DNA of 52,390 nt. It comes from a virus. How positions within the stretch are numbered: the first letter of the stretch is position 1; the number at the start of each line of letters is the position of its first letter. The notes under the pieces were generated by a model that was given only the letters and a program-made list of their open reading frames with translations, did no database searches and had not been told where the DNA came from. This document shows positions 1,451 to 49,291 of the stretch, piece by piece. Location: positions 1-52,390 of the IMG/VR virus record IMGVR_UViG_3300033143_006241. One strand, given 5' to 3'. Position numbers and translations under genes: made by a program.

Positions 1451-1621
1451 AAAACTATTTGTATTAATGTTGTTATTAGTATTATATACATATAAATTTT
1501 TTTTACTTATATTATTTTTTTTGCATTTCAACGCGCGCGCACCCACAGAAAAACCAAACTCAAAAAAGTAGCTTACAGGATCGGGCTTCTTTTTAACCTC
1601 TGGATTTTTTGAATATATGGT

Positions 1622-2275
1622 ATGGGACTTGCATCTATTTTAGATATGAAAAACTTTAAAACATGTAATTCAGTTTTTATAGGAACTCAGAAATTCAACT
1701 TTGATCAATATGGAATCATCAACACTGATTTTGGATACATCCAACGGCTTGATAACTCAATCAAAGTTATTAACACTACTAAGATTGACATGCCCGTCAA
1801 CTGTCCCTGTGGTAAATGTAATATCATTACAAAAAAAATAGATCCATGGGATACAATTTATAATATACCAGCCAAGGTATACGGAGATGTTATTAGATTT
1901 AAAAAGGCGGGCTGGAAAAATATAAGAATAATAACATGTAATGAAACAAAAACTCAACTACCTATAATAAGAATGTCTCTAACTATATTTAAAAAACATT
2001 TTAATATTAAAAAATATATTTTACCATTCTATTATAACAAATACAAATCAAACATAACAACACTATCACATTCACACAAACATTTTGAGTTTATTTTACA
2101 CGAAGAGAGGGCAGACACACCAGCCATGAACTGTTGTGTATTCGACGACAACGTAGACAACAAAGCAATATATATAACAATGGCAATGATAAGCGCCCAA
2201 CTTGATGGTAAAAAAGTATGGTATGCTTTTGACAAAAAGGAGGGTTTAAAATTTGTTTCTTTTAAAGTTTCCTAA
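1622..2275 (+). CDS. Unknown protein, 217 aa, with a CPCGKC cysteine cluster
   Basis: Not recognised. Residues 58-65 or so form a V-N-C-P-C-G-K-C cluster that could bind a metal. It is followed by a mixed alpha/beta region with I-D-P-W-D and a C-terminal strand-rich half ending in K-K-V-W-Y-A-F-D. No membrane segment is seen. The start is uncertain: neither ATG 1622 nor the next in-frame ATG (about 1649) has a clear ribosome-binding site. It is transcribed toward, and ends 30 bases from, the first minus-strand gene. Confidence 0.6.
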   Translation: MGLASILDMKNFKTCNSVFIGTQKFNFDQYGIINTDFGYIQRLDNSIKVINTTKIDMPVNCPCGKCNIITKKIDPWDTIYNIPAKVYGDVIRFKKAGWKNIRIITCNETKTQLPIIRMSLTIFKKHFNIKKYILPFYYNKYKSNITTLSHSHKHFEFILHEERADTPAMNCCVFDDNVDNKAIYITMAMISAQLDGKKVWYAFDKKEGLKFVSFKVS

Positions 2276-2653: not shown

Positions 2654-4582
2654 TTAGTTACAACACTTTGTACAGGTATCACACCTATTCGCAACAACCT
2701 TTTCCGAAACAAAATTAGTTATAGTATTACAATGTTTATAGATAACTTTTTTGTTCTTAACTCTTGTACTAATTACAGTATCTTTTTCAATACCGTGTTT
2801 AATAATGTAATCAGCCAAAGAATCGGACACAACATTTTCTACAGTCCGTTTTATTTCCCGAGCACCATAGGTTTCAGAATAACCTTTCTTTAGTATAAGT
2901 CTTTTTACAGCTTGAGAAAAGTTTATAAAAATATGCTTATCTTCTAAATAATTATTTAACTTATCTAGTTCAAGTTCAACAATTTTAGAACAGGATTTTT
3001 TATCCATATCATTAAAATATACAGTACCTGTCAATCTATTTAAAAACTCCGGTTTAAACATATCTTTTATAGCTTTTTTTATTACTATATTTTTTCGTTT
3101 ACTTGTTATTTTATTTACATCACCAAATCCAATTGTTTTTCCTATACCTTGAACTTCTGTAGCCCCTATATTTGAAGTCATAAGAATTAGTGTATCTTTA
3201 AAGGATACAACTTCACCATGATTATCTGTTAACCTTCCTTCATCCATTATCTGAAGCATTAATTGATGAACTTTTTCACTTGCTTTTTCTACTTCATCAA
3301 ACAATACTACCGAAAAAGGATTTTCAAGAATAGCATTTGTAAGTATACCACCCTCGTCGCTGCGAACATAACCATTTGGGCTTCCTATAAGCTTCGAATA
3401 CTCATGATCAGCAGAATACTCAGAACAATCTATTCTAATAAAGCCACCTTCGGCCTCTTTCTTAAACAATTCATCTGCCAAAACTTTAGCTAGTAATGTT
3501 TTACCTACACCTGTTTTACCAGCGAGCAAGAAAGATCCTATTGGACATACTGGATCTTTAATTCCTATTTTAGATCTCTTTAAAGCTCTTATTATATCAT
3601 TAGTGGCACCCTGTTGCCCTATTACTAATTTATTAAGTTCACCTTCTAAATCTAACAATTTATCAGACGAAATATCCTTTAATGTCTTATATTCTGTTTT
3701 CTGCACTACTCTTTTACTTGAAGAGGATGCTATATTTGTTTTTTTATTTAATTTTTTATAGTTAGCCCCAGGATTAACGGCTACGCATAGTTCATAAAGC
3801 TCGTCAACCACTTGTTGTGGGGTAAATTTTGTCAATAATCCAAACCTGTCTATAAGACCAAATACAGATTCAATATCTTTTATAAACGATGTTATTATAA
3901 AAGATTTATAAGAGGGCTCATCTTCATAATTTCCCATCAAGACTACTTCTTTGAGATTATCTACTTCGAATTTTCTAATAATCACATACATAATAAGTCT
4001 ATCCCACCACTTCTTTACATAAACATGCTTTGTTTTTTTAACAGCTTCTATTGTTTTTAGTATGTGATCATCTAATGTTTGTCCATTTGATTTTTCAGAT
4101 TCATGACCCTCTACTGCTGCGTTTTCTGAACCAACAATCTCGTTAACAGTTTTATCATCAAATACAGCATCCTCCATTGGGCTATCTTTTGTGTTCCAAG
4201 ATGGGTTTTCAACAAACGGATACCCATCAACCTCACCGCTGTCATCTACTCTAATAAGACCAAACGGGTTTACAATTAAACCGTCTGGATTTAATAAAGG
4301 ATTAATTTTATATAATTTTATTAAAAGCCCTTCTCTGAATACATCAAAATTAGAAACAAGATCTTTGTTAGAATTAATAAAATATAAAAGTTGTCCTATA
4401 TTAATAACATAAATAGATAATATATAATCTTCATACCTTCTTTTTGGGATCAAACCTCTTTCTTTTGAAAACATCGAAAGCTCTGATTCGATATCTTCTT
4501 TGTTATCCATTTTTAAAATCCTAACCGACATGCCTATTTTATCAAAAGGAACCTGTATTACTTCATACTTTTTATTATCCAT
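2654..4582 (-). CDS. Hsp100/ClpA-like AAA+ unfoldase with one AAA+ module, 642 aa
   Basis: The C-terminal half is a canonical D2-type Clp/Hsp100 module: Walker A GKTGVGKT (355-362), Walker B VVLFDE (425-430), sensor 1 TSNIG (469-473), arginine finger in PEFLNR (R516) and sensor 2 GAR (573-575). Such modules unfold proteins by threading them through a hexamer pore. The first 300 residues are not a Clp N-domain or D1 module that I recognise. The end carries a C-x2-C-x2-CC cluster (634-641) not typical of ClpA or ClpB. No GAFTGA loop is present, so it is not a sigma-54 activator. It lies 16 bases after the Rad52-like gene and ends the operon. No ClpP gene is in the window, so it may recruit host ClpP or act alone. 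Confidence 0.85.
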   Translation of the reverse strand: MDNKKYEVIQVPFDKIGMSVRILKMDNKEDIESELSMFSKERGLIPKRRYEDYILSIYVINIGQLLYFINSNKDLVSNFDVFREGLLIKLYKINPLLNPDGLIVNPFGLIRVDDSGEVDGYPFVENPSWNTKDSPMEDAVFDDKTVNEIVGSENAAVEGHESEKSNGQTLDDHILKTIEAVKKTKHVYVKKWWDRLIMYVIIRKFEVDNLKEVVLMGNYEDEPSYKSFIITSFIKDIESVFGLIDRFGLLTKFTPQQVVDELYELCVAVNPGANYKKLNKKTNIASSSSKRVVQKTEYKTLKDISSDKLLDLEGELNKLVIGQQGATNDIIRALKRSKIGIKDPVCPIGSFLLAGKTGVGKTLLAKVLADELFKKEAEGGFIRIDCSEYSADHEYSKLIGSPNGYVRSDEGGILTNAILENPFSVVLFDEVEKASEKVHQLMLQIMDEGRLTDNHGEVVSFKDTLILMTSNIGATEVQGIGKTIGFGDVNKITSKRKNIVIKKAIKDMFKPEFLNRLTGTVYFNDMDKKSCSKIVELELDKLNNYLEDKHIFINFSQAVKRLILKKGYSETYGAREIKRTVENVVSDSLADYIIKHGIEKDTVISTRVKNKKVIYKHCNTITNFVSEKVVANRCDTCTKCCN

Positions 4583-4598: not shown

Positions 4599-5504
4599 CT
4601 ATTCTTTAAAAGTAGTTGAAGTTAAACCGGATCTTACTATTAAACCTGCCTCACTTGCCGTTAATTCATCAATAGACTTTTGTTTTCCTATAATTTGTTC
4701 AATATAATCTTCTATAGCAACTCCTTTCATCTTAGCAAGATTAAGTATAACAAGTTTTTGTGTGTTTTTAGGACTAGCCGTTGTACCACCAAGATCACCA
4801 TAATCAAAACCGTGATCAACCACAGAATTATCTTCTGATTCCGTTTGTGTAACAGGTTCCTCTTGAGTTTGTTCTTCTTTCTTCTCAACAGTTTCTGTTT
4901 TAGGAACAACATCTATTTTCTTTTTTGATGCTGCCAACCTTTTTTTAAGTTCTATTATTTTACTATTTTTTTCAGCAGCATTTGGTTTACTAACCTTTTG
5001 TTCTGCTTGTTTTGGTGGACTTTGTTTACCTGAATCCTGTGAAACAGGCTTGCTTGTATTCGTTTGTTTATTATCGATATCAGAAACTCTAACATACTCT
5101 CCTGTAATTGGATCTTTAGTAACATCCATTTCTTTATTTCCAATACAAAGCTGCTTTGAACAAGCCTTCAAGCTATCCATGACAGCGTTTCCATACGCAT
5201 CTCCAAGATTAACTGGTTTTCCTTTGTTAATACCGCTAGTATACTTGTGTATTGGCGCAGAACCAAAGGCCTCTTTTTTTATAACATTATCACCAACTGT
5301 AGCTGATAATTCTAATAACAAAAGAACAGTATCATCATTAATTACTTTATGTGAAATTACACGTGTATTCCACAAACAACCAAACACTTCATTTAGACGA
5401 CTACGTATTGCAGATGCAGGGACATAAGGATACTTTTGTTTTGGTAATATTCTTATTTCTATTTCTTTTTCTAAAGCTTTAACTAAATCTTCATTCTGTG
5501 CCAT
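4599..5504 (-). CDS. Rad52/22-family single-strand annealing protein, 301 aa
   Basis: The first 120 residues fit the Rad52-like annealing core: the N-terminal YVPASAIRSRLNEVFG segment, a central beta-rich stretch, and the helical GDAYGNAVMDSLKACSKQLCIGN block that matches the family's conserved D-x-L-K-R-A-x-x-x-x-G motif. Residues 150-240 are a disordered Q/K/E-rich linker. The last 60 residues form a small helical domain, possibly for partner contacts such as SSB. Such proteins anneal complementary single strands in phage recombination. An AGGAG site precedes the ATG, and a -24/-12 promoter sits 34 bases upstream of the start. Confidence 0.75.
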   Translation of the reverse strand: MAQNEDLVKALEKEIEIRILPKQKYPYVPASAIRSRLNEVFGCLWNTRVISHKVINDDTVLLLLELSATVGDNVIKKEAFGSAPIHKYTSGINKGKPVNLGDAYGNAVMDSLKACSKQLCIGNKEMDVTKDPITGEYVRVSDIDNKQTNTSKPVSQDSGKQSPPKQAEQKVSKPNAAEKNSKIIELKKRLAASKKKIDVVPKTETVEKKEEQTQEEPVTQTESEDNSVVDHGFDYGDLGGTTASPKNTQKLVILNLAKMKGVAIEDYIEQIIGKQKSIDELTASEAGLIVRSGLTSTTFKE

Positions 5505-5537
5505 CTTGAATCTCCTATGTTTTTTACTATGAATTAA

Positions 5538-5554
5538 TGCAATATGTGTGCCAA
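5538..5554 (-). promoter_or_regulatory. Sigma-54-type promoter P1 (Rad52-like operon)
   Basis: The minus strand reads TTGGCACACATATTGCA, matching the RpoN consensus TGGCAC-N5-TTGCA with the required 12-base GG-to-GC step. The predicted start is near 5527, giving a leader of about 23 bases to the ATG at 5504. It lies 6 bases past the tmRNA 3' end. Confidence 0.85.
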
Positions 5555-5559
5555 ACTGT

Positions 5560-5886
5560 TGGTGGAGGCGGCGAGAATCGAACTCGCGTCTTAAGTACCA
5601 AATTAAAAACCATTATACAGCAATTTGCTATAATTTGCTATCTATAAAACTAATACTAAATACCTTAACATATAATGCAGTTGTTAGGTTTCTGTTCCAA
5701 GGTGCCTAACCGCCCGTGTAGCTATATATTAGCTACAAGTGCTACTTTGTCTGCCTTTATAGCAGAGTTTACGTAGCCGTACATATTAGTGTTAATTATT
5801 TTTTTGATACGTTTTTAAGTAGTCAAGTATCATCTACTTGCTGTGATTATTCAAATTGTTTACCTAATCGAACCCTGATCGCCCCC
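5560..5886 (-). ncRNA. ssrA: tmRNA (SsrA), 327 nt
   Basis: This RNA rescues stalled ribosomes by acting as tRNA-Ala and then as a short mRNA. The 5' end GGGGGCG pairs with CGCCTCC near the 3' end as a 7-bp acceptor stem (one G-U), followed by discriminator A and an encoded CCA. The T arm is GCGAG-TTCGATT-CTCGC. The 5' part has the conserved GGGTTCGATTAGG. The tag frame ends inside a hairpin (GTAGCTA-ATATA-TAGCTAC). A later GTTAGG/CCTAAC pairing fits a pseudoknot. It is one-piece, not permuted. A -24/-12 promoter starts about 13 bases upstream. The predicted tag is described separately. Confidence 0.93.
5722..5778 (-). other. Predicted tmRNA tag reading frame
   Basis: Only one of the three frames in the central part of the tmRNA is open and ends in hydrophobic residues: GYVNSAIKADKVALVANI, then TAG. 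The stop lies in the predicted hairpin after the tag, as in other tmRNAs. The resume codon is inferred: GGC (Gly) is the best candidate, GCT (Ala) a few codons later is possible. The tag ends VALVANI rather than the usual ALAA-type degron. Confidence 0.6.
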
Positions 5887-5909
5887 ATATTTTATTTAAT
5901 ATATACTCA

Positions 5910-5926
5910 TGCAAATTCTATGCCAA
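5910..5926 (-). promoter_or_regulatory. Sigma-54-type promoter P2 (tmRNA)
   Basis: TTGGCATAGAATTTGCA on the minus strand has GG and GC 12 bases apart. The predicted start is near 5899, 13 bases before the tmRNA 5' end, leaving a short leader for RNase P removal. Its -24 box overlaps the last codons and stop (L-A-TAG) of the uracil-DNA glycosylase gene. Confidence 0.85.
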
Positions 5927-6445
5927 AGATAACTCATACGCTTTTTTAATACAATCAAAAAATTTCTGTTTTGGTGCATAATTTCTCAAATAGTAAGAAG
6001 GATGGCAAATAGGCATAACCATCATACCATTTAAAATTTTATGAATATTTCCTTCTTCTTTTGTAATAGATTTGAGTGTTGGTATAAAAACTTTTGAAGC
6101 AACCCTACCTAACAAACAAATAACTTTAGGTTTTACCTCAATAATTTCACGCACTAAATAGGGTAAACATGTTTCAATTTCTAAATCTTTTGGATCTCTA
6201 TTTTTCAGGGGTCTGCATTTTACTATATTTGAAATATAAATATTATCCCGTGTAATATCTATGCAGTTTAAAGCCTCATCTATAAGATCCCCGCTTCTAC
6301 CAACAAAGGGTATCCCTTGTTTATCTTCTTCCCTGCCGGGGGCTTCCCCTACGAACATTAATCTAGCATGGTTATTTCCTTTACCATTTACTATATTAGT
6401 TCTAGTTTTATATAATTCACACGCCTTACAATTTTCTATTAACAT
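5918..6445 (-). CDS. Family 4 (Fe-S) uracil-DNA glycosylase, 175 aa
   Basis: The enzyme removes uracil from DNA to start base-excision repair. The four Fe-S cysteines of family 4 are at C6, C9, C77 and C93. The catalytic motif GEAPGREED is at 33-41 and the DNA-intercalation motif HPSYYLR begins at H148. The length is normal for a compact family 4 enzyme. It stands alone between two -24/-12 promoters: P3 drives it, and P2 lies across its stop codon. Together with the dUTPase at 8716-9177 it suggests the phage keeps uracil out of its DNA. A role in replication, as in poxvirus UDG, is an alternative. Confidence 0.9.
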   Translation of the reverse strand: MLIENCKACELYKTRTNIVNGKGNNHARLMFVGEAPGREEDKQGIPFVGRSGDLIDEALNCIDITRDNIYISNIVKCRPLKNRDPKDLEIETCLPYLVREIIEVKPKVICLLGRVASKVFIPTLKSITKEEGNIHKILNGMMVMPICHPSYYLRNYAPKQKFFDCIKKAYELSLA

Positions 6446-9197: not shown

Positions 9198-12100
9198 TTA
9201 TTTATTCCAATAACTATTTATACTAGATTCTGCTATCATATGAACATCTGTAAAAAAAGAATCCCAAGCATCTATAATAGATTTACTAAGGGTTTTTGCC
9301 ATATCTTGTGATTGATCTTTTTTTGTTTCTACTACAATTTCATCATGAACATTAAGAACTATATTAGCGTCATACCCATCTTTTATTATATTATTACTTA
9401 AATTAATAATTGATTGTTTAAGTACATCAGCATTGCTATTCGAAACCTTGAATCCATTTGCTATATACATATGGGGTTCATCGCCACTAACAAAATCATA
9501 CGTATCTTCTATACCAATATAATCTATTGACTTAACTACATCATAGAATTCAGATTCAGGCATTGTAATGTATGCATTTAATCCAAGCCCAAATCCGTCT
9601 ATAAAACTACCTGCATTGGTTACAAAATCATTTACAATAGACAACTGGTAATCCCCATTAACGCCTTTTTCTTTAAACGACATAACACCAACAGATAATA
9701 AAAGTTGTTGTATAGTAAAAGCTACAGTATCATTAGAACATAAAATAAATAAATCCTGTTTATCCTCACTAACCCTAGATCTACATCCTAAAAATCCAGA
9801 AACGAAAGCTTCCCTAATTTCTACAGGAGAATTTAAAATTGTTTCCATGTATCCTATTTTTCCTGTTTTATTATATAACATATAATACAATAATCTTTTT
9901 ACATTCTCATTGAAATTTATAAAAATTTTTGATCCTTTATTTACAAATTTTATAGAGCTATTCTTACTAAGATTACCAAAGGATCTAAAGTATTTAGCAC
10001 AAGCATCAACCAAAGTTTTAGTTATTACTTTATTTTTTATATAAAATAATTTTTGTCTGCTTTCAAAGTAACCACTGTCGTATAAACAACCAAGTATAAA
10101 ACCTAATTCTTTAGTTATATAACTATTTTTAGTTATTACTTTAAACCTACCTATGGCTTCACCTATACTAACAGGAAACCCTTCATGTTTACCAGTATAC
10201 ATTCTTACCGACTTACCTAATGTTTCTCCAAGAGCGCACATAGGATTAGAATCATACCTACCATTTTTAACCACTATTGGGTGATTAAAAGTTCCAGTTA
10301 AAGTAAAACCCATATCAGTAGTTAATTTATATACTTTTTGTTTACCTGAATATTTACCTACAGCTACTATGCTTCCATCTTTTCCACAAGAAAGAATGCG
10401 TTGTTTACCAACATTATCGCCAATAAATCCTGCTCCAAAAACATTAGTGTTAGCAACCAGACAGCCCTGGATGGGGCTGTTTTTTCCACAACGTTTTATA
10501 TGATTCAGTATATTTTTTCTTTCATCGCTGTTAACTTCTGACCCAGGAAAATTGTAATACCGCCTTCTTCCAGAAACGGTAACACTATACCCTTTGTTGA
10601 TAGCCATTTCTGCAGCCCCATCTAAGTAACTTTTTACTCTAGGATAAGCTCTAAAATAATCATTAATAAACTCTTCGGCTTTATCTTCAGAAATATCCAA
10701 ACGCTCAGCCAGCCCATACTTTGACATGCCGTAGCAATTATGTATAATAAACCCATTAGCTAAAAATAACTCTCTATTCTCAACAGATATATCATAAACA
10801 GCTTTAATACCTTTACTTTTTATTGAAACTATTGGAAGCGTAATTATATTATTATCATAAATAAATTTAAAAAAATCATCATATTTACTAAAATTTTTTA
10901 AATGTGTGTTATTAACATGATTTAATTTTATATCATTAGACAATAAATATTTAATAGTTTTACAAGGCTTAATGCTTTTCAATCTATTATTTTGGTTATT
11001 AATATTATAAAAAGGCATAATACCACTTATTGAACTAAAACATCTGTTATTTTTATAATTTGTAACAAATCCTATTTGTTTCATAAACAACTGTCTAGAA
11101 TTATCAGATACTATACTCAAATCATAAAACTTTTTTCCTGGATACCTTTTATCATAATGATATGTTATAGAGCTGATTATATTCATATTTAACAGTAATA
11201 ATTGTAAATCCTTTACTAATATATAAGATGTACTAGCATATCTTATCCTAACACCATTCTGGTTATTTGCAATAGAACCGTCTCCTTCCCAAGCCCATCT
11301 AATAAAGGACGTTTGTATATTTTTGGGACTCCTTTTTATACAATCTGGTATATGTATAGTAAGTGTTTTATTATTTCCTAGATTAAATAAACTTTTTACC
11401 CATCCAGATAACAAAACCGAAGTAATACTATATGTAATAGTTTTATCTTTTTTTTCTTTATATACACCTAAACGATCACCGAATAATTTATATAGAAGGG
11501 TATGTGTTTGTTTTAACATTTCTGGTTCTTTTTCTGATAAAGAAGCTCCAATACTTTCTGGATATTCTCTATTTTTTCTCGTAAAAGTGCTACCTTCAGC
11601 AACGAACAGCCCCAAAAAAGCTGCCCAATCTTCATCTAAAATTTTTGGCAAGTCAAGATGTTTATAATTACTATTTTTCTTAACAGAAAATTTATCAAAT
11701 TTATACATCTCGTTCGCAAACAAGTTAGACCCTGCTTTAAGACAAGCTTGATCTACATCTATATTTACATCTTTAAGCGCCTTATCTACATAATTACCAT
11801 CAATGTTTATTACTTTAATTGGGTGATCTTCTGTAACTTCTAAAGTATAGCCATACTTTGTTTTAATTTCGAATACTTCTTTTTTTCCTTTATATTGTTT
11901 ATCTATTATTCTATCTTTACCCATATCATGTGCAATAACATCATTAATACTAGAATTTTTTATTTCCTTTATTCCTTTATTTGTAAAAATTGTTGAATGA
12001 TTACAGATACATAAGCCGAAATTAAGACTCTTCGTATGAAGTCTATAATTTTTCTTATTAGGATCGTCATCTGGAAGTTTTTTATCAGTAACAACTTCTT

Positions 12101-13343
12101 CTTCTGTTAAACCATACACATCACAAGCAGTAACTGTATGTAAATCTTTTCCTTGCCTATATGCTTCAATAAATATAGGATCTTTAGATAAACAAGCCAA
12201 TATACGAAGTTCTGCCTGTGACATATCACTAGTAACCATATCATATCCAGGTTTAGCTATAAAACAAGATCTAAAAGAAGTCTGTCCTGGCATTTGTTGT
12301 AAATTGGGATTACTACAACTAAGTCTACCAGTACGTACCATTTGTCTATATGATGGGTGAAGTCTTCCTGTTATTGGATTTATTTTTTTAAGTATGGTTT
12401 CTCCAAAACTACTTAAAAGTTTTTCTAGCTGCCTATATTGAAGCAGCATTGGTATTGCTTCATGTGCCTTTTTAACTTTAGTTAAAGATCCAACAGCGGT
12501 ATCCTCCAACTGTAAACCAAGATTTCTTAAACAAGAAAGAACTTGAGCATTGCTAGCTAAATTTATAGCAGGAACACCAAACAAACCTTGTTGATTTATT
12601 CCTCTCGCTAACATTGGTAAAATATCGCTAGTAAGTTGCTTTAATTTTGTTTCAGAATCCTCTATTAATGCTTTCCACCCATCTTTGTCTAACAAAACAC
12701 CAGCCAATTCCATATCAGCCATACACGGTGCAAATTCAAACTCTAGTTTACATACCCTATTTAACCCTTGACTTGATATTGTTGGAGTTTGTGCTTTAAC
12801 TATACCAAACAAACACATAGCGTCGTGTGCAGCATACTGTATTTGTCTGTTTGTTAACTCTTTGTTTCCAATACCACAAAATCCTTTTGCTACATCTTTT
12901 TCAATTTGATAATTTAAATATTTATAAACTAAGTATTTTAAATTAGCTGGAGAATTAAGCCCCAAAGTAATACATCTCTCTGCTATCATTGTATCATATA
13001 TTCTTTTCGTTTTTATACCATAATTAGATTTAAGCATCTTATAATCAAACACAACGTTCTGGAATATATGTAAAAATCTATCATCTTCTAAAATAACTTT
13101 AAACAGTTCGCCTGGTATATAGCGAAAATCATATACAAAGACTCTACCGTTTGGTAAGGCTAACTGTAATAAAACAATTTTATCTTCAAATGGATTTAAT
13201 CCGGTGGTCTCTGTATCAATACCAATAGCATTAAACTTATCAAAGTATTCAAAAGTTTTAAATGCTTCTTCTGTTGTTTTTATGTATTTATAATCTAATT
13301 TAAACGGTAAATTATAAAAAGTTGTATCAGTAGAATCAAACAT
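9198..13343 (-). CDS. polA: Family A DNA polymerase with 3'-5' exonuclease, split by two inteins (1381 aa precursor)
   Basis: The main replicative polymerase candidate. The exonuclease has DEDDy residues D43/E45, D100, and Y170 with D174. The polymerase has motif A SDMSQAELR (D373), the O-helix R434-x3-K438-x3-F442-G, and motif C VHDE (1332-1335). Intein 1 occupies 445-869, inside the O helix between NFGL and CYGM. Intein 2 occupies 961-1302, between PIQG and SNAD. Joining the exteins gives a 614-residue enzyme with continuous family A motifs. There is no 5'-nuclease domain. It is 19 bases downstream of the clamp-loader gene in the operon from promoter P4. Confidence 0.95.
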   Translation of the reverse strand: MFDSTDTTFYNLPFKLDYKYIKTTEEAFKTFEYFDKFNAIGIDTETTGLNPFEDKIVLLQLALPNGRVFVYDFRYIPGELFKVILEDDRFLHIFQNVVFDYKMLKSNYGIKTKRIYDTMIAERCITLGLNSPANLKYLVYKYLNYQIEKDVAKGFCGIGNKELTNRQIQYAAHDAMCLFGIVKAQTPTISSQGLNRVCKLEFEFAPCMADMELAGVLLDKDGWKALIEDSETKLKQLTSDILPMLARGINQQGLFGVPAINLASNAQVLSCLRNLGLQLEDTAVGSLTKVKKAHEAIPMLLQYRQLEKLLSSFGETILKKINPITGRLHPSYRQMVRTGRLSCSNPNLQQMPGQTSFRSCFIAKPGYDMVTSDMSQAELRILACLSKDPIFIEAYRQGKDLHTVTACDVYGLTEEEVVTDKKLPDDDPNKKNYRLHTKSLNFGLCICNHSTIFTNKGIKEIKNSSINDVIAHDMGKDRIIDKQYKGKKEVFEIKTKYGYTLEVTEDHPIKVINIDGNYVDKALKDVNIDVDQACLKAGSNLFANEMYKFDKFSVKKNSNYKHLDLPKILDEDWAAFLGLFVAEGSTFTRKNREYPESIGASLSEKEPEMLKQTHTLLYKLFGDRLGVYKEKKDKTITYSITSVLLSGWVKSLFNLGNNKTLTIHIPDCIKRSPKNIQTSFIRWAWEGDGSIANNQNGVRIRYASTSYILVKDLQLLLLNMNIISSITYHYDKRYPGKKFYDLSIVSDNSRQLFMKQIGFVTNYKNNRCFSSISGIMPFYNINNQNNRLKSIKPCKTIKYLLSNDIKLNHVNNTHLKNFSKYDDFFKFIYDNNIITLPIVSIKSKGIKAVYDISVENRELFLANGFIIHNCYGMSKYGLAERLDISEDKAEEFINDYFRAYPRVKSYLDGAAEMAINKGYSVTVSGRRRYYNFPGSEVNSDERKNILNHIKRCGKNSPIQGCLVANTNVFGAGFIGDNVGKQRILSCGKDGSIVAVGKYSGKQKVYKLTTDMGFTLTGTFNHPIVVKNGRYDSNPMCALGETLGKSVRMYTGKHEGFPVSIGEAIGRFKVITKNSYITKELGFILGCLYDSGYFESRQKLFYIKNKVITKTLVDACAKYFRSFGNLSKNSSIKFVNKGSKIFINFNENVKRLLYYMLYNKTGKIGYMETILNSPVEIREAFVSGFLGCRSRVSEDKQDLFILCSNDTVAFTIQQLLLSVGVMSFKEKGVNGDYQLSIVNDFVTNAGSFIDGFGLGLNAYITMPESEFYDVVKSIDYIGIEDTYDFVSGDEPHMYIANGFKVSNSNADVLKQSIINLSNNIIKDGYDANIVLNVHDEIVVETKKDQSQDMAKTLSKSIIDAWDSFFTDVHMIAESSINSYWNK
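9438..10463 (-). other. Intein 2 in DNA polymerase, 342 aa
   Basis: It starts at C961 after PIQG and ends S-N before the extein S1303. The splicing blocks are visible: N-terminal C-L-V-A-N-T-N-V-F-G, block B TGTFNHPIVV, and a C-terminal D-E-P-H-M-Y-I-A-N-G-F-K-V-S-N with N as last residue. The penultimate residue is S rather than H. The homing-endonuclease blocks are worn: GFILGCLYDSGYF resembles the first LAGLIDADG helix, while FVSGFLGCRSRV lacks the acidic residue in the second. It probably still splices but may no longer home. Confidence 0.9.
10737..12011 (-). other. Intein 1 in DNA polymerase, 425 aa
   Basis: It starts at C445 after NFGL and ends H868-N869 before extein C870. Block B is TEDHPIKV. 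The C-terminal block is D-I-S-V-E-N-R-E-L-F-L-A-N-G-F-I-I-H-N. Two LAGLIDADG-type helices carry their acidic residues: AAFLGLFVAEG and FIRWAWEGDG. It is therefore a full, probably active homing intein of the LAGLIDADG class, placed in the nucleotide-binding O helix, the most conserved part of the polymerase. Confidence 0.93.
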
Positions 13344-14388: not shown

Positions 14389-14419
14389 AAGATAAATCCT
14401 CTACTTTCTACTTTACATA

Positions 14420-14436
14420 TGCAAAAACTATACCAT
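14420..14436 (-). promoter_or_regulatory. Sigma-54-type promoter P4 (clamp loader-polymerase operon)
   Basis: ATGGTATAGTTTTTGCA on the minus strand keeps GG and GC 12 bases apart; the -24 box has T in place of C. The predicted start is near 14409, 21 bases before the DnaX-like ATG. The element overlaps the last base of the preceding HAD gene. It would drive genes from 14388 down to 6504. Confidence 0.75.
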
Positions 14437-15274: not shown

Positions 15275-15655
15275 TTAAACTTGCCAACGTGCTTTAGTTC
15301 CACGTATATCGTAATGAACAAAACTTCTATATAAACCTAAACCACCTTGTTTCATTTTACCTGTTCTTATCAGTCCCTCTATTATTGTATGTAAACATGT
15401 TGGATAAATTCTTCTGGTTCTTATATCCGCAGCTTTTGCGTACAAATGTTGGCTATTTTTTGACCCGCCAATTTTTTTGTTATAATCTTCTGTACGATAG
15501 CCGCTGTTCACGTATACAGGCACATTAACGAAGTCTCTAAGAACTTGTAAGTTTTCAACTAATTCTTTTATATTTTCCATATATTCTTCTGGAACCCAAA
15601 CACCGTTTTTACATGCAAAATCTTTTAATTGAAAATTTTTTGTTAACCTATTCAT
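15275..15655 (-). CDS. Peptidase M15-type (D-Ala-D-Ala/L-Ala-D-Glu) peptidase, 126 aa
   Basis: A compact zinc peptidase of the Hedgehog/DD-peptidase fold (M15_3-like). The metal ligands fit H70 and D77 in SQHLYAKAADIR and H114 in FVHYDIR, with D116 beside it. The start LTKNFQLKDFAC is the usual first helix. Phage proteins of this type are endolysins or tail-associated cell-wall hydrolases. There is no signal peptide or cell-wall-binding domain, and no holin nearby. Its location in an early/replication-type operon from P5 is unusual for a lysis gene. Confidence 0.85.
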   Translation of the reverse strand: MNRLTKNFQLKDFACKNGVWVPEEYMENIKELVENLQVLRDFVNVPVYVNSGYRTEDYNKKIGGSKNSQHLYAKAADIRTRRIYPTCLHTIIEGLIRTGKMKQGGLGLYRSFVHYDIRGTKARWQV

Positions 15656-15880: not shown

Positions 15881-15911
15881 TAGTTCTTCTCGATAATCTG
15901 CAAGTATTCTA

Positions 15912-15928
15912 TGCAATAACCATGCCAC
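15912..15928 (-). promoter_or_regulatory. Sigma-54-type promoter P5
   Basis: GTGGCATGGTTATTGCA on the minus strand has the RpoN spacing. The predicted start is near 15901, about 21 bases before the ATG at 15880. It drives the small gene, the M15 peptidase, the unknown gene and the HAD-like gene down to P4. Confidence 0.82.
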
Positions 15929-16187: not shown

Positions 16188-16240
16188 ATCAAACATCCTC
16201 AACAAAATTTCTTTTAAACCAATATACACCTATCACAGTA

Positions 16241-16257
16241 CGCAATATTTATGCCAA
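16241..16257 (-). promoter_or_regulatory. Sigma-54-type promoter P6
   Basis: TTGGCATAAATATTGCG on the minus strand fits the consensus. Its -24 box encodes the final L-A-stop of the reductase gene ending at 16249. The predicted start is near 16230, giving a leader of about 43 bases to 16187. Confidence 0.82.
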
Positions 16258-37353: not shown

Positions 37354-39543
37354 TTACTTATCCCTAATTATTTTATTTAACGTATCAACATAAAGCTTAC
37401 CTATAACTTGATAACTAAAATTCTCTGTTACGTGTTTTTGAGCAAATAAACCAGTCTCATCAGCTTCTTTTCTATACTCATACACATGCCTCATTACTTC
37501 AGCAGCCTGTTTAACATTTGCTTGAGCCCAGCATTGGTCTGAAATATACCACGGCGTATTAACCATTCCAGATACAGGAGTTAAAATATAATCAATTAAA
37601 TAACTATTACCTTTATTTAAAAATTGATTTACTCCACCATACCCTGTTACTATAGATGGGTTTCCAACCGCCGATGCTTCAGCAATAGGCAACCCGAAGC
37701 CTTCAGCCCGGTTTAAACTAACAAAACAATTACCTAATTTATGTAACTCTAACATTTCTCTACCAGACAACATATCTAATATCAAATATACTCTAGCATA
37801 ATCTTTGCTCTTTGGCATTATCATACTTTCTTTTATTTTTTTAATTGTTTGTACAACAATATTCTGTTCTTGTTTTGAATAACCGTGTCTATGAACTTTA
37901 AGAACTAACGACACCTTATCTTCGTTACTAAAAGCATGCCAATATGCTTTAAGAAGAGAAACAGGATCTTTCTTCTCGGAAAATTGAAACACAGAATAAA
38001 AAATGTAATCATCTTTTTGTGGACCATCCATAACAAACTTATCAACACCGCTAAACTGCGTAGTGTCTATAACATGAGGAACACAATATATAGGAACAGT
38101 CACCCCACTATTACGGAACACTTCCACATTCCATTCACAAGGAACAAGTATAGCATCCATACAATTACAATAACCTATCCAATCGTGGTGTATCTTATCC
38201 GTCTCCCACACAGTGTATCCTACATTTATTTTTCCTTCTTCTCTATACATAGGGTAATGTTCAGGAGTTAAATGAATCAAGTTGATGTCATAATTTATTT
38301 TTTTATTTATATATTTTGATAAATAATTTCCAAGCTCTCCAAGATCAGGACGTTGTTGTTCAAAACTAACAGGTAACAGTGTAAGATCTGCCCCCTGTTC
38401 TATTAAAGCTTTTATATAGTGTCTTGCACAAGAGCCATAACCAGAATTACCACACCATACGGGAAAACCATTTCTTCTTACATATAACGTGTGATTTGGT
38501 ACAGTAACACAATAAACTTTACCAACGTAGTTAACAATTTTTTCAAAACTTTTATTATTTTTACTCCCATTTTTACTACAACAATTACGTTTAAATCTTA
38601 TTCTAATCTCCCAATGATCAGCTTTCGCTGCATACTGTCTATCATATATTTTTACAATATCACCTTTAGAATGTCTTTTGATGTATGATCCACTATATCC
38701 TACTTTTAACAATAACTCCATAAAATCGTTTCTTAGTTTTATTGAGGAAGTATAGTAAGAAGACCCCCCTTTATCATATTCCTCACCAGAAGTACGATTA
38801 TCATGACCGTCTCCTAACATTAACGCTTCAAATAAAATATTTAATTGTTTTTTAGAACAGTTATTTAATATATATCTAGGAATATATTTATCATAACAAT
38901 AACCAAACTTTTCTTTTAAATACACTGCTAATAGTTTATCATTAACAATAACCCTACCATCTTTTCTTATATTTATTTTACCTACTGTAACGAAATCCAA
39001 AGCTTTTGCCATTTTATTTAAATTACTACCATATTGGCGAATTTGAACAATATAGTCATGACGTTTTGTTATAGTTGAAGACCCTTCACTCAAATAATAA
39101 CCTAAAAATTCTAACCACTGCTCTGTTTTTATTTTTCTTCCACATACTTCAATATAGTCTACCCCGGATTTATCCCAAATACCATCTTTTTTAAAATATC
39201 TACATAAACCAAAACACTCTTCTGCTTTCTCAAACCCCCACCCATCAGTTTTATCTTTTTTTCTATGCCAATATTTATTTTGTACATACATACTATGATC
39301 AGGTGTAACTAACAAATCTATACAACTATACTGACTATAAAATTTATACATATCCCCATCCCAATCTTTCTCTATAATATTATCTGGACGATGATATTCT
39401 ATAATATGATTTTCGTTTAATGTACATACTTTATCTTCAAAGTTAACGTTTTCAAATAATTTCCACCCAGAATCTGTTAATAATTCAGTTACTTCATCAT
39501 AACAACCATCTAAAATACTACCCCAATATTTTACTTTTAACAT
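37354..39543 (-). CDS. GT4-type glycosyltransferase interrupted by an intein (729 aa precursor)
   Basis: The exteins are residues 1-13 (M-L-K-V-K-Y-W-G-S-I-L-D-G) and 367-729 (S-G-Y-G-S-C-A-R-H-Y...). Joined, they form one 376-residue GT-B enzyme whose first glycine-rich loop W-G-S-I-L-D-G-S-G-Y-G is rebuilt exactly at the splice point. The C-terminal domain has the GT4 donor motif N-R-A-E-G-F-G-L-P-I-A-E-A. Likely transfers a sugar to a phage or host target. The intact GT4 gene at 40105-41334 has a similar opening. The precursor is inactive until spliced because the first glycine loop is split. Confidence 0.9.
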   Translation of the reverse strand: MLKVKYWGSILDGCYDEVTELLTDSGWKLFENVNFEDKVCTLNENHIIEYHRPDNIIEKDWDGDMYKFYSQYSCIDLLVTPDHSMYVQNKYWHRKKDKTDGWGFEKAEECFGLCRYFKKDGIWDKSGVDYIEVCGRKIKTEQWLEFLGYYLSEGSSTITKRHDYIVQIRQYGSNLNKMAKALDFVTVGKINIRKDGRVIVNDKLLAVYLKEKFGYCYDKYIPRYILNNCSKKQLNILFEALMLGDGHDNRTSGEEYDKGGSSYYTSSIKLRNDFMELLLKVGYSGSYIKRHSKGDIVKIYDRQYAAKADHWEIRIRFKRNCCSKNGSKNNKSFEKIVNYVGKVYCVTVPNHTLYVRRNGFPVWCGNSGYGSCARHYIKALIEQGADLTLLPVSFEQQRPDLGELGNYLSKYINKKINYDINLIHLTPEHYPMYREEGKINVGYTVWETDKIHHDWIGYCNCMDAILVPCEWNVEVFRNSGVTVPIYCVPHVIDTTQFSGVDKFVMDGPQKDDYIFYSVFQFSEKKDPVSLLKAYWHAFSNEDKVSLVLKVHRHGYSKQEQNIVVQTIKKIKESMIMPKSKDYARVYLILDMLSGREMLELHKLGNCFVSLNRAEGFGLPIAEASAVGNPSIVTGYGGVNQFLNKGNSYLIDYILTPVSGMVNTPWYISDQCWAQANVKQAAEVMRHVYEYRKEADETGLFAQKHVTENFSYQVIGKLYVDTLNKIIRDK
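38446..39504 (-). other. Intein in glycosyltransferase, 353 aa
   Basis: It runs from C14 to N366 and is followed by extein S367. Block A is C-Y-D-E-V-T-E-L-L-T-D-S-G-W, block B is T-P-D-H-S-M-Y-V, and the C-terminal block is V-P-N-H-T-L-Y-V-R-R-N-G-F-P-V-W-C-G-N. The penultimate residue is G, not H. The LAGLIDADG helices are W-L-E-F-L-G-Y-Y-L-S-E-G and L-F-E-A-L-M-L-G-D-G, both with their acidic residue, so the homing endonuclease is probably intact. Confidence 0.9.
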
Positions 39544-44169: not shown

Positions 44170-44209
44170 ACTTATCTCCAATCGTCAATCTTCAATCTAT
44201 AATAAACTA

Positions 44210-44226
44210 TGCAATATACATACCAA
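44210..44226 (-). promoter_or_regulatory. Sigma-54-type promoter P8 (dnaJ operon)
   Basis: TTGGTATGTATATTGCA on the minus strand; one change (C to T) in the -24 box, GG/GC spacing correct. The predicted start near 44199 gives a 30-base leader to the dnaJ ATG. It drives dnaJ, the RecB-like nuclease, the HNH gene and the glycosyltransferases. Confidence 0.8.
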
Positions 44227-44948: not shown

Positions 44949-44990
44949 AATCTTATTCTCCGTTTTATATGTATTTTAACTGTGAAAGAA

Positions 44991-45007
44991 TGCAACATCT
45001 ATGCCAA
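44991..45007 (-). promoter_or_regulatory. Sigma-54-type promoter P9 (SSB operon)
   Basis: TTGGCATAGATGTTGCA on the minus strand, RpoN spacing. Its -24 box supplies the last codons and stop (L-A-TAG) of the primase gene. The predicted start near 44980 gives a 32-base leader to the SSB ATG. Confidence 0.83.
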
Positions 45008-49204: not shown

Positions 49205-49274
49205 GTTTATTTCTCCAATTTGGAACGAATAACAAGAATTGAATAAGCTACACACCGTAATTTGACTTTAACCA

Positions 49275-49291
49275 TGCAATAACTATGCCAA
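49275..49291 (-). promoter_or_regulatory. Sigma-54-type promoter P10 (ligase-helicase-primase operon)
   Basis: TTGGCATAGTTATTGCA on the minus strand matches the consensus with correct spacing. The predicted start near 49264 leaves a 60-base leader to the ligase ATG at 49204, the longest of the ten. Confidence 0.85.

What the first reader, a model, noticed from the sequence alone, without database searches (positions are those of the whole stretch)
5560..5926. Phage-borne tmRNA with its own sigma-54-type promoter
A full one-piece tmRNA, with encoded CCA, acceptor stem, T arm and hairpin at the tag stop, is preceded 13 bases upstream by promoter P2. A phage copy controlled independently of its flanking genes suggests active ribosome rescue during infection, perhaps when host mRNA is destroyed.
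Basis: partly seen in the sequence, partly recalled or inferred. Interest (0 to 1): 0.8.

Follow-up and report, generated by a model that had tools for sequence, protein, structure and literature searches.

The report
Phage tmRNA under sigma-54-type promoter
An uncultivated phage carries its own copy of the bacterial RNA that frees stuck ribosomes, apparently switched on by the same activator-gated (sigma-54-type) promoter class that it places in front of about ten of its transcription units, a wiring I found for no other tmRNA in the collections searched.

Summary
Window 5886-5560 (minus strand) is a one-piece tmRNA (Rfam RF00023, 86 bits, gathering 47) with encoded CCA, G3-U70 pair, T arm, two pseudoknots and a hairpin at the tag stop. 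The tag reads NTNMYGYVNSAIKADKVALVANI*, resuming at nt 94 after UAAUU. It is preceded by TTGGCATAGAATTTGCAT, a near-perfect -24/-12 site with predicted start 13 nt upstream. The site is one of ten in the window (0.29 expected), at fixed spacing and at gene starts. A second phage contig (L024/G001) keeps gene order, tmRNA, tag frame and promoter at about 70% identity. Scans of 84,980 genomes and 2.9 million viral contigs for promoter plus tmRNA head found only that relative. No RpoN, activator, SmpB or ClpP is in the fragment, so the host or unseen phage genes must supply them. Phage tmRNAs are known; sigma-54-type control of one was not found in the literature searched.

The parts
5560..5886 (-). 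one-piece tmRNA (ssrA), 327 nt, encoded CCA
   Evidence: RF00023 86.1 bits; helices in window and L024
5909..5926 (-). sigma-54-type -24/-12 promoter TTGGCATAGAATTTGCAT of the tmRNA; predicted start 5899
   Evidence: same site upstream of tmRNA in L024
5722..5793 (-). tag reading frame NTNMYGYVNSAIKADKVALVANI*, resume codon AAC at tmRNA nt 94
   Evidence: only frame open in both window and L024
5717..5737 (-). 7-bp hairpin at tag stop (tmRNA nt 150-170)
5918..6445 (-). uracil-DNA glycosylase gene upstream; its last codons and stop (TTG GCA TAG) form the tmRNA -24 element
   Evidence: PF03167
6482..6499 (-). sigma-54-type promoter of UDG
5537..5554 (-). sigma-54-type promoter of the Rad52-like/Clp unit, begins a few nt after the tmRNA CCA
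4599..5504 (-). Rad52-like protein (by eye; no Pfam match), conserved next to tmRNA in G001
2654..4582 (-). single-AAA+ Clp-type unfoldase with Walker A/B, GYV pore loop and IGF loop at the ClpP-docking position
49274..49291 (-). sigma-54-type promoter, DNA ligase
44990..45007 (-). sigma-54-type promoter, 109-aa gene; overlaps primase stop
44209..44226 (-). sigma-54-type promoter, DnaJ-like gene
16240..16257 (-). sigma-54-type promoter, 95-aa gene; overlaps upstream stop
15911..15928 (-). sigma-54-type promoter, before the M15 endolysin region
14419..14436 (-). sigma-54-type promoter, clamp-loader (DnaX-like) gene
1617..1634 (+). sigma-54-type promoter, 217-aa gene; same site in G001

Best explanation
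A phage-owned ssrA gene that makes a working one-piece tmRNA. Shown from sequence: intact tRNA-like domain with the G3-U70 pair that alanyl-tRNA synthetase reads, PK1, canonical resume signal with A at -4, an open tag frame, a stop hairpin, and a sigma-54-type promoter that is conserved in a diverged relative and shared with about nine other phage units (replication, repair, chaperone, lysis). Inferred: RNA polymerase with sigma-54 (host RpoN, or an unseen phage one), fired by an ATP-driven enhancer-binding activator, starts at 5899; RNase P trims the 13-nt leader and 3' processing frees the CCA; host AlaRS and SmpB bring it to ribosomes stalled on broken mRNA; translation of the tag ends normally and releases the ribosome. 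Its synthesis is thereby timed with phage replication and repair genes. The tag end (VALVANI, VALSV in the relative) lacks the usual LAA-like end, so tagged proteins may be poorly routed to host ClpXP; the phage Clp unfoldase two genes downstream, which keeps a ClpP-docking loop, could be the matching receiver (weakest step).
For: Rfam hit over gathering score along the full model; helices kept in L024 with compensatory changes, e.g. acceptor C6-G to U6-A, T arm A-U to G-C, PK1 stem AAGUAG/CUACUU to AGUUGG/CCAACU. Resume codon 12 nt after PK1 and A four nt before it, as in E. coli where that A is essential (PMC2481249); resume position 94/96 matches the 85-96 of most other one-piece viral tmRNAs. 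Promoter: 15-nt TGGCAC-N5-TTGC is the measured RpoN consensus (PMC8743547); 10 sites against 0.29 expected, with a peak at one spacing only (9 on the coding strand; other spacings 0-2); 7 of 9 predicted minus-strand starts lie 0-40 nt before a gene, p 2e-8, 8 of 9 with the tmRNA. Same promoter before the tmRNA in L024. Clp IGF aligns with the VGF loop of ClpC.
Against: No transcript data. The tmRNA promoter also reads as a weak sigma-70 site, TTGGCA-17-TATATT, 10 of 12, though L024 lacks that -10 at that spacing (sequence). No RpoN DNA-binding domain, enhancer-binding activator, SmpB or ClpP in window or G001, but both are fragments. The P2 helix is imperfect and my P2 pairing guess failed in L024. 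Tag-frame conservation shows no third-position bias (21 codons, two sequences).
Confidence: 0.72

Rival explanations
1. The tmRNA is real but transcribed by sigma-70 polymerase or a phage-specific sigma factor; the TTGGCA...TTGCAT motif is that factor's promoter or an operator and only resembles the sigma-54 consensus.
For: TTGGCA-17-TATATT scores 10 of 12 as sigma-70 at the tmRNA; no RpoN or activator in either fragment; no shared upstream activator box found.
Against: Across 16 sites in two contigs T-26 G-25 G-24 A-22 and T-15 T-14 G-13 C-12 are fixed by the search, T-10 is invariant without being asked for and A-11 is 15 of 16, while the would-be sigma-70 -10 hexamer is not conserved; the spacing equals the RpoN 15-mer exactly.
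Confidence: 0.17
2. Decoy or relic: the RNA is expressed but does not complete trans-translation; it titrates SmpB or is a decaying captured gene.
For: Tag ends differ between the relatives and lack the LAA-like end; a phage tmRNA that is little more than a tRNA-like domain (DS6A) may titrate SmpB (PMC4131195); ARAGORN misses both.
Against: Helices, G3-U70, A at -4 and open tag frame are all kept at about 70% identity, with compensatory changes.
Confidence: 0.09
3. Captured host fragment from integration at ssrA (attachment-site copy).
For: tmRNA 3' ends are common attachment sites; many viral contigs hold only the 3' end.
Against: Complete gene in the middle of collinear phage replication genes at 51-77% protein identity in two contigs; no integrase recognised beside it.
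Confidence: 0.02

Closest known systems
Phage-encoded tmRNAs (mycobacteriophages Bxz1, Wildcat; Bacillus phage G; huge phages)
   Same: complete phage ssrA with tRNA-like domain and tag (PMC4131195, PMC7162821)
   Different: unrelated phage lineage; here under a sigma-54-type promoter and linked to Rad52-like and Clp genes
OM43 phage Melnitz tmRNA
   Same: phage ssrA under a dedicated regulatory element, there a glutamine riboswitch (PMC9004378)
   Different: Melnitz has a two-piece permuted tmRNA and a riboswitch; here one-piece and a promoter class
Bacterial RpoN regulons
   Same: 15-nt TGGCAC-N5-TTGC core (PMC8743547)
   Different: on a phage genome, spread over replication, repair, chaperone, lysis and tmRNA units
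ClpC/ClpA D2 unfoldase modules; Clp-like proteins of jumbo phages GAP32, XbC2, Phosso
   Same: AAA+ module and IGF/VGF ClpP loop
   Different: single ATPase module with an unmatched 300-aa N-terminal part; next to a tmRNA

Membership tests
tmRNA (RF00023) | covariance-model match above gathering score | tested here: met
   86.1 vs 47 bits, full model; L024 101 bits
tmRNA (RF00023) | alanine-type acceptor (G3-U70), CCA, T arm | tested here: met
   both sequences
tmRNA (RF00023) | PK1 followed about 12 nt later by the resume codon with A at -4 | tested here: met
   AAAAAAAUAAUU then AAC (window), GAC (L024); rule from PMC2481249
tmRNA (RF00023) | tag ending in an LAA-like proteolysis signal (usual, not needed for ribosome release) | tested here: not met
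   VALVANI* and VALSV* against A-ending tags in other viral tmRNAs
tmRNA (RF00023) | SmpB binding, alanylation, tagging | not testable with these tools
   biochemistry needed
sigma-54 (RpoN) promoter | GG and GC elements with 15-nt core spacing | tested here: met
sigma-54 (RpoN) promoter | dependence on RpoN and on an AAA+ enhancer-binding activator | not testable with these tools
   no RpoN or activator gene in the fragments; the only PF00158 match is the Clp protein, without GAFTGA
Clp/Hsp100 ClpP-partner unfoldase | Walker A/B, pore-loop Tyr, IGF/L ClpP loop | tested here: met
   GKTGVGKT 355, VVLFDE 425, GYV 404, IGF 484

The most novel reading that the evidence does not exclude
A phage lineage that runs a large part of its transcription, tmRNA included, through sigma-54-type promoters, so that infection depends on host RpoN and an ATP-driven activator, and that pairs its tmRNA with its own ClpP-docking unfoldase suited to a tag that host ClpXP would not take. 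The RpoN activator RtcR is tied to tmRNA damage in E. coli (PMC9650030), which would offer a ready-made trigger.
Probability: 0.2. Interest if true: 0.85.

Novelty: new variant of a known kind. Interest (0 to 1): 0.58.

Why it matters
Phage tmRNAs are known (402 of 18,146 phage genomes in PMC9004378), but why and when they are made is open. A promoter class that stays silent until an activator fires gives a testable answer: tmRNA is made together with replication and repair genes under a signal-gated switch. It also suggests that rpoN and its activators are infection determinants for this lineage, and gives a motif that can be scanned for in other phages.

Tried and rejected
ARAGORN finds neither copy. 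Distant BLAST to 50,697 phage records: no DNA match. Single-protein scans of viral contigs found no relatives; the tmRNA 3'-end pattern found L024. A search for shared activator boxes upstream of the promoters gave only A/T-rich words. My hand-drawn upper P2 helix does not form in L024. UDG-based relatives are distant, have no tmRNA by ARAGORN and no promoter clusters. A Clp-based scan added only a remote AAA+ match. Attachment-site origin rejected by synteny. Literature: no paper found in the held library on sigma-54 control of a phage tmRNA or on a phage-wide sigma-54 promoter set; this covers only open-licence papers. The fold prediction of the Clp protein from two sequences failed (mean pLDDT 30) and was not used.

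Full report
OBSERVATION. cmscan places one RF00023 match in the window, 5886-5560 minus strand, over the full model at 86.1 bits against a gathering score of 47. ARAGORN reports nothing. The strand folds at -83.8 kcal/mol against -66.1 +/- 5.2 in shuffles. The finding's coordinates are exact: RNA 5560-5886, promoter 5909-5926.

ANATOMY OF THE RNA. 5' GGGGGCG pairs with 3' CGCCUCC ahead of ACCA; the third pair is G-U, the alanine identity mark (established knowledge). The T arm is GCGAG/CUCGC. PK1 is AAGUAG/CUACUU with GAUAC/GUAUC. Twelve nt after PK1 comes AAC at nt 94, preceded by UAAUU with A at -4. In E. coli the resume codon lies 12 nt after PK1 and A86, four nt before it, is essential (PMC2481249). 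The frame reads NTNMYGYVNSAIKADKVALVANI and stops in a 7-bp hairpin; the other two frames stop early. A second pseudoknot (GUUAGG/CCUAAC, ACCUU/AAGGU) follows. All.

RELATIVE. A pattern for the tmRNA 3' end found 102 stretches in viral contigs. One of them, L024 (contig of 22,746 bases, G001), is a true relative: the order Clp, Rad52-like, tmRNA, UDG, a small zinc-ribbon-like protein, PDDEXK endonuclease, metallopeptidase, dUTPase-like protein, DNA polymerase, clamp loader is the same, at 51-77% protein identity. Its tmRNA (101 bits) forms the same helices with compensatory changes, and its tag is DTTMSSYVNALSRVEKVALSV* in the same frame. Both tags share M..YVN and KVAL but end in NI and SV, whereas tags that ARAGORN reads in other viral tmRNAs nearly all end in A (ARAGORN's own tag rules may bias this comparison).

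PROMOTER. The motif TGGYA-N6-TTGC occurs nine times on the coding strand of the window at this spacing, and 0-2 times at any other spacing from 0 to 20. The strict form occurs 10 times against 0.29 in shuffles, and 6 times against 0.13 in G001; two of the six in G001 lie in a 225-nt repeat, so five are independent. Over the 16 sites T at -10 is invariant and A at -11 nearly so, although the search did not ask for them. The core equals the measured RpoN 15-mer TGGCACnnTTnTTGC (PMC8743547). Seven of nine minus-strand predicted starts fall 0-40 nt before a gene start (p 2e-8), eight of nine with the tmRNA. Downstream genes include DNA ligase, a DnaJ-like protein, clamp loader, UDG, Rad52-like/Clp and the region before an M15 endolysin. 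In G001 the gene-start enrichment is not significant on its own. Three -24 elements double as Leu-Ala-stop of the gene upstream, UDG among them. Among the 28 tmRNA loci with both ends in hand (counting L001, a copy of the window stretch), only the window and L024 have the site within 120 nt upstream. A pattern joining the site to a tmRNA head hits no genome of 84,980 and only L024 among viral contigs.

CONTROL AND CONTEXT. It has its own predicted start, but so have both neighbours, and nothing separates them: the Rad52-like promoter begins a few nt after the CCA, and no terminator-like site lies between. The better reading is membership of a phage-wide promoter set. RpoN, enhancer-binding activator, SmpB and ClpP are absent from both fragments (the PF00158 match is the Clp AAA+ core, which lacks GAFTGA). 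The fragments are incomplete, so absence says little. A sigma-70 reading of the tmRNA promoter (TTGGCA-17-TATATT, 10 of 12) is the main rival; it is not kept in L024 (sequence).

CLP NEIGHBOUR. 2654-4582 encodes a protein whose residues 303-613 match the D2 module of ClpC (E 1e-69) with IGF at the ClpP-docking loop; ClpB-type disaggregases lack this loop (established knowledge). It is 69% identical in G001. Similar modules occur in jumbo phages. A tag that does not end in LAA beside a phage unfoldase that can dock ClpP suggests a private tag-unfoldase pair; this is inference only. A fold prediction gave no usable model.

MECHANISM AND CONFIDENCE. Shown: structure, conservation, promoter grammar and its non-randomness. 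Inferred: RpoN dependence, trimming, alanylation by the host, SmpB use, ribosome release. I put 0.72 on a functional tmRNA under sigma-54-type control. Phage tmRNAs themselves are not new (PMC4131195, PMC7162821, PMC9004378), and one is under a riboswitch. A sigma-54-type promoter set on a phage, with a tmRNA in it, I did not find in the held literature. An RpoN activator, RtcR, is tied to tmRNA damage in E. coli (PMC9650030), which makes an RNA-damage trigger thinkable but untested. The host is unknown; the sugar-nucleotide and KdsC-like genes hint at a Gram-negative host (inference).

Noticed in passing
window, ten sites listed in parts; G001 (L105, L106): A phage-wide set of sigma-54-type promoters, arguably more notable than the tmRNA itself.
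   Followed up: partly
L105:5415-5639 and G001 15362-15585: A 225-nt direct repeat (97%) carrying a sigma-54-type site, placed at the 3' ends of the Rad52-like and HAD genes and shortening the former (217 vs 301 aa); looks like a small mobile element that brings a promoter; no Rfam match.
   Followed up: partly
window 5918, 16249, 44999: The -24 element TTGGCATAR doubles as the terminal Leu-Ala-stop codons of the upstream gene in three of ten promoters.
   Followed up: yes
window 9198-13343: DNA polymerase I-type gene with two intein-like insertions; the G001 gene has almost the same length (1379 vs 1381 aa, 77% identical), so both seem to be kept.
   Followed up: no
window 37354-39543: Glycosyltransferase-like ORF that seems to hold an intein-like N-terminal insertion.
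   Followed up: no
window 16200-41300: About 25 kb of sugar-nucleotide, glycosyltransferase and methyltransferase genes amid replication genes, almost free of sigma-54-type sites.
   Followed up: no
window 2654-4582: Single-module Clp-type unfoldase with ClpP-docking IGF loop and an unmatched 300-aa N-terminal part.
   Followed up: partly
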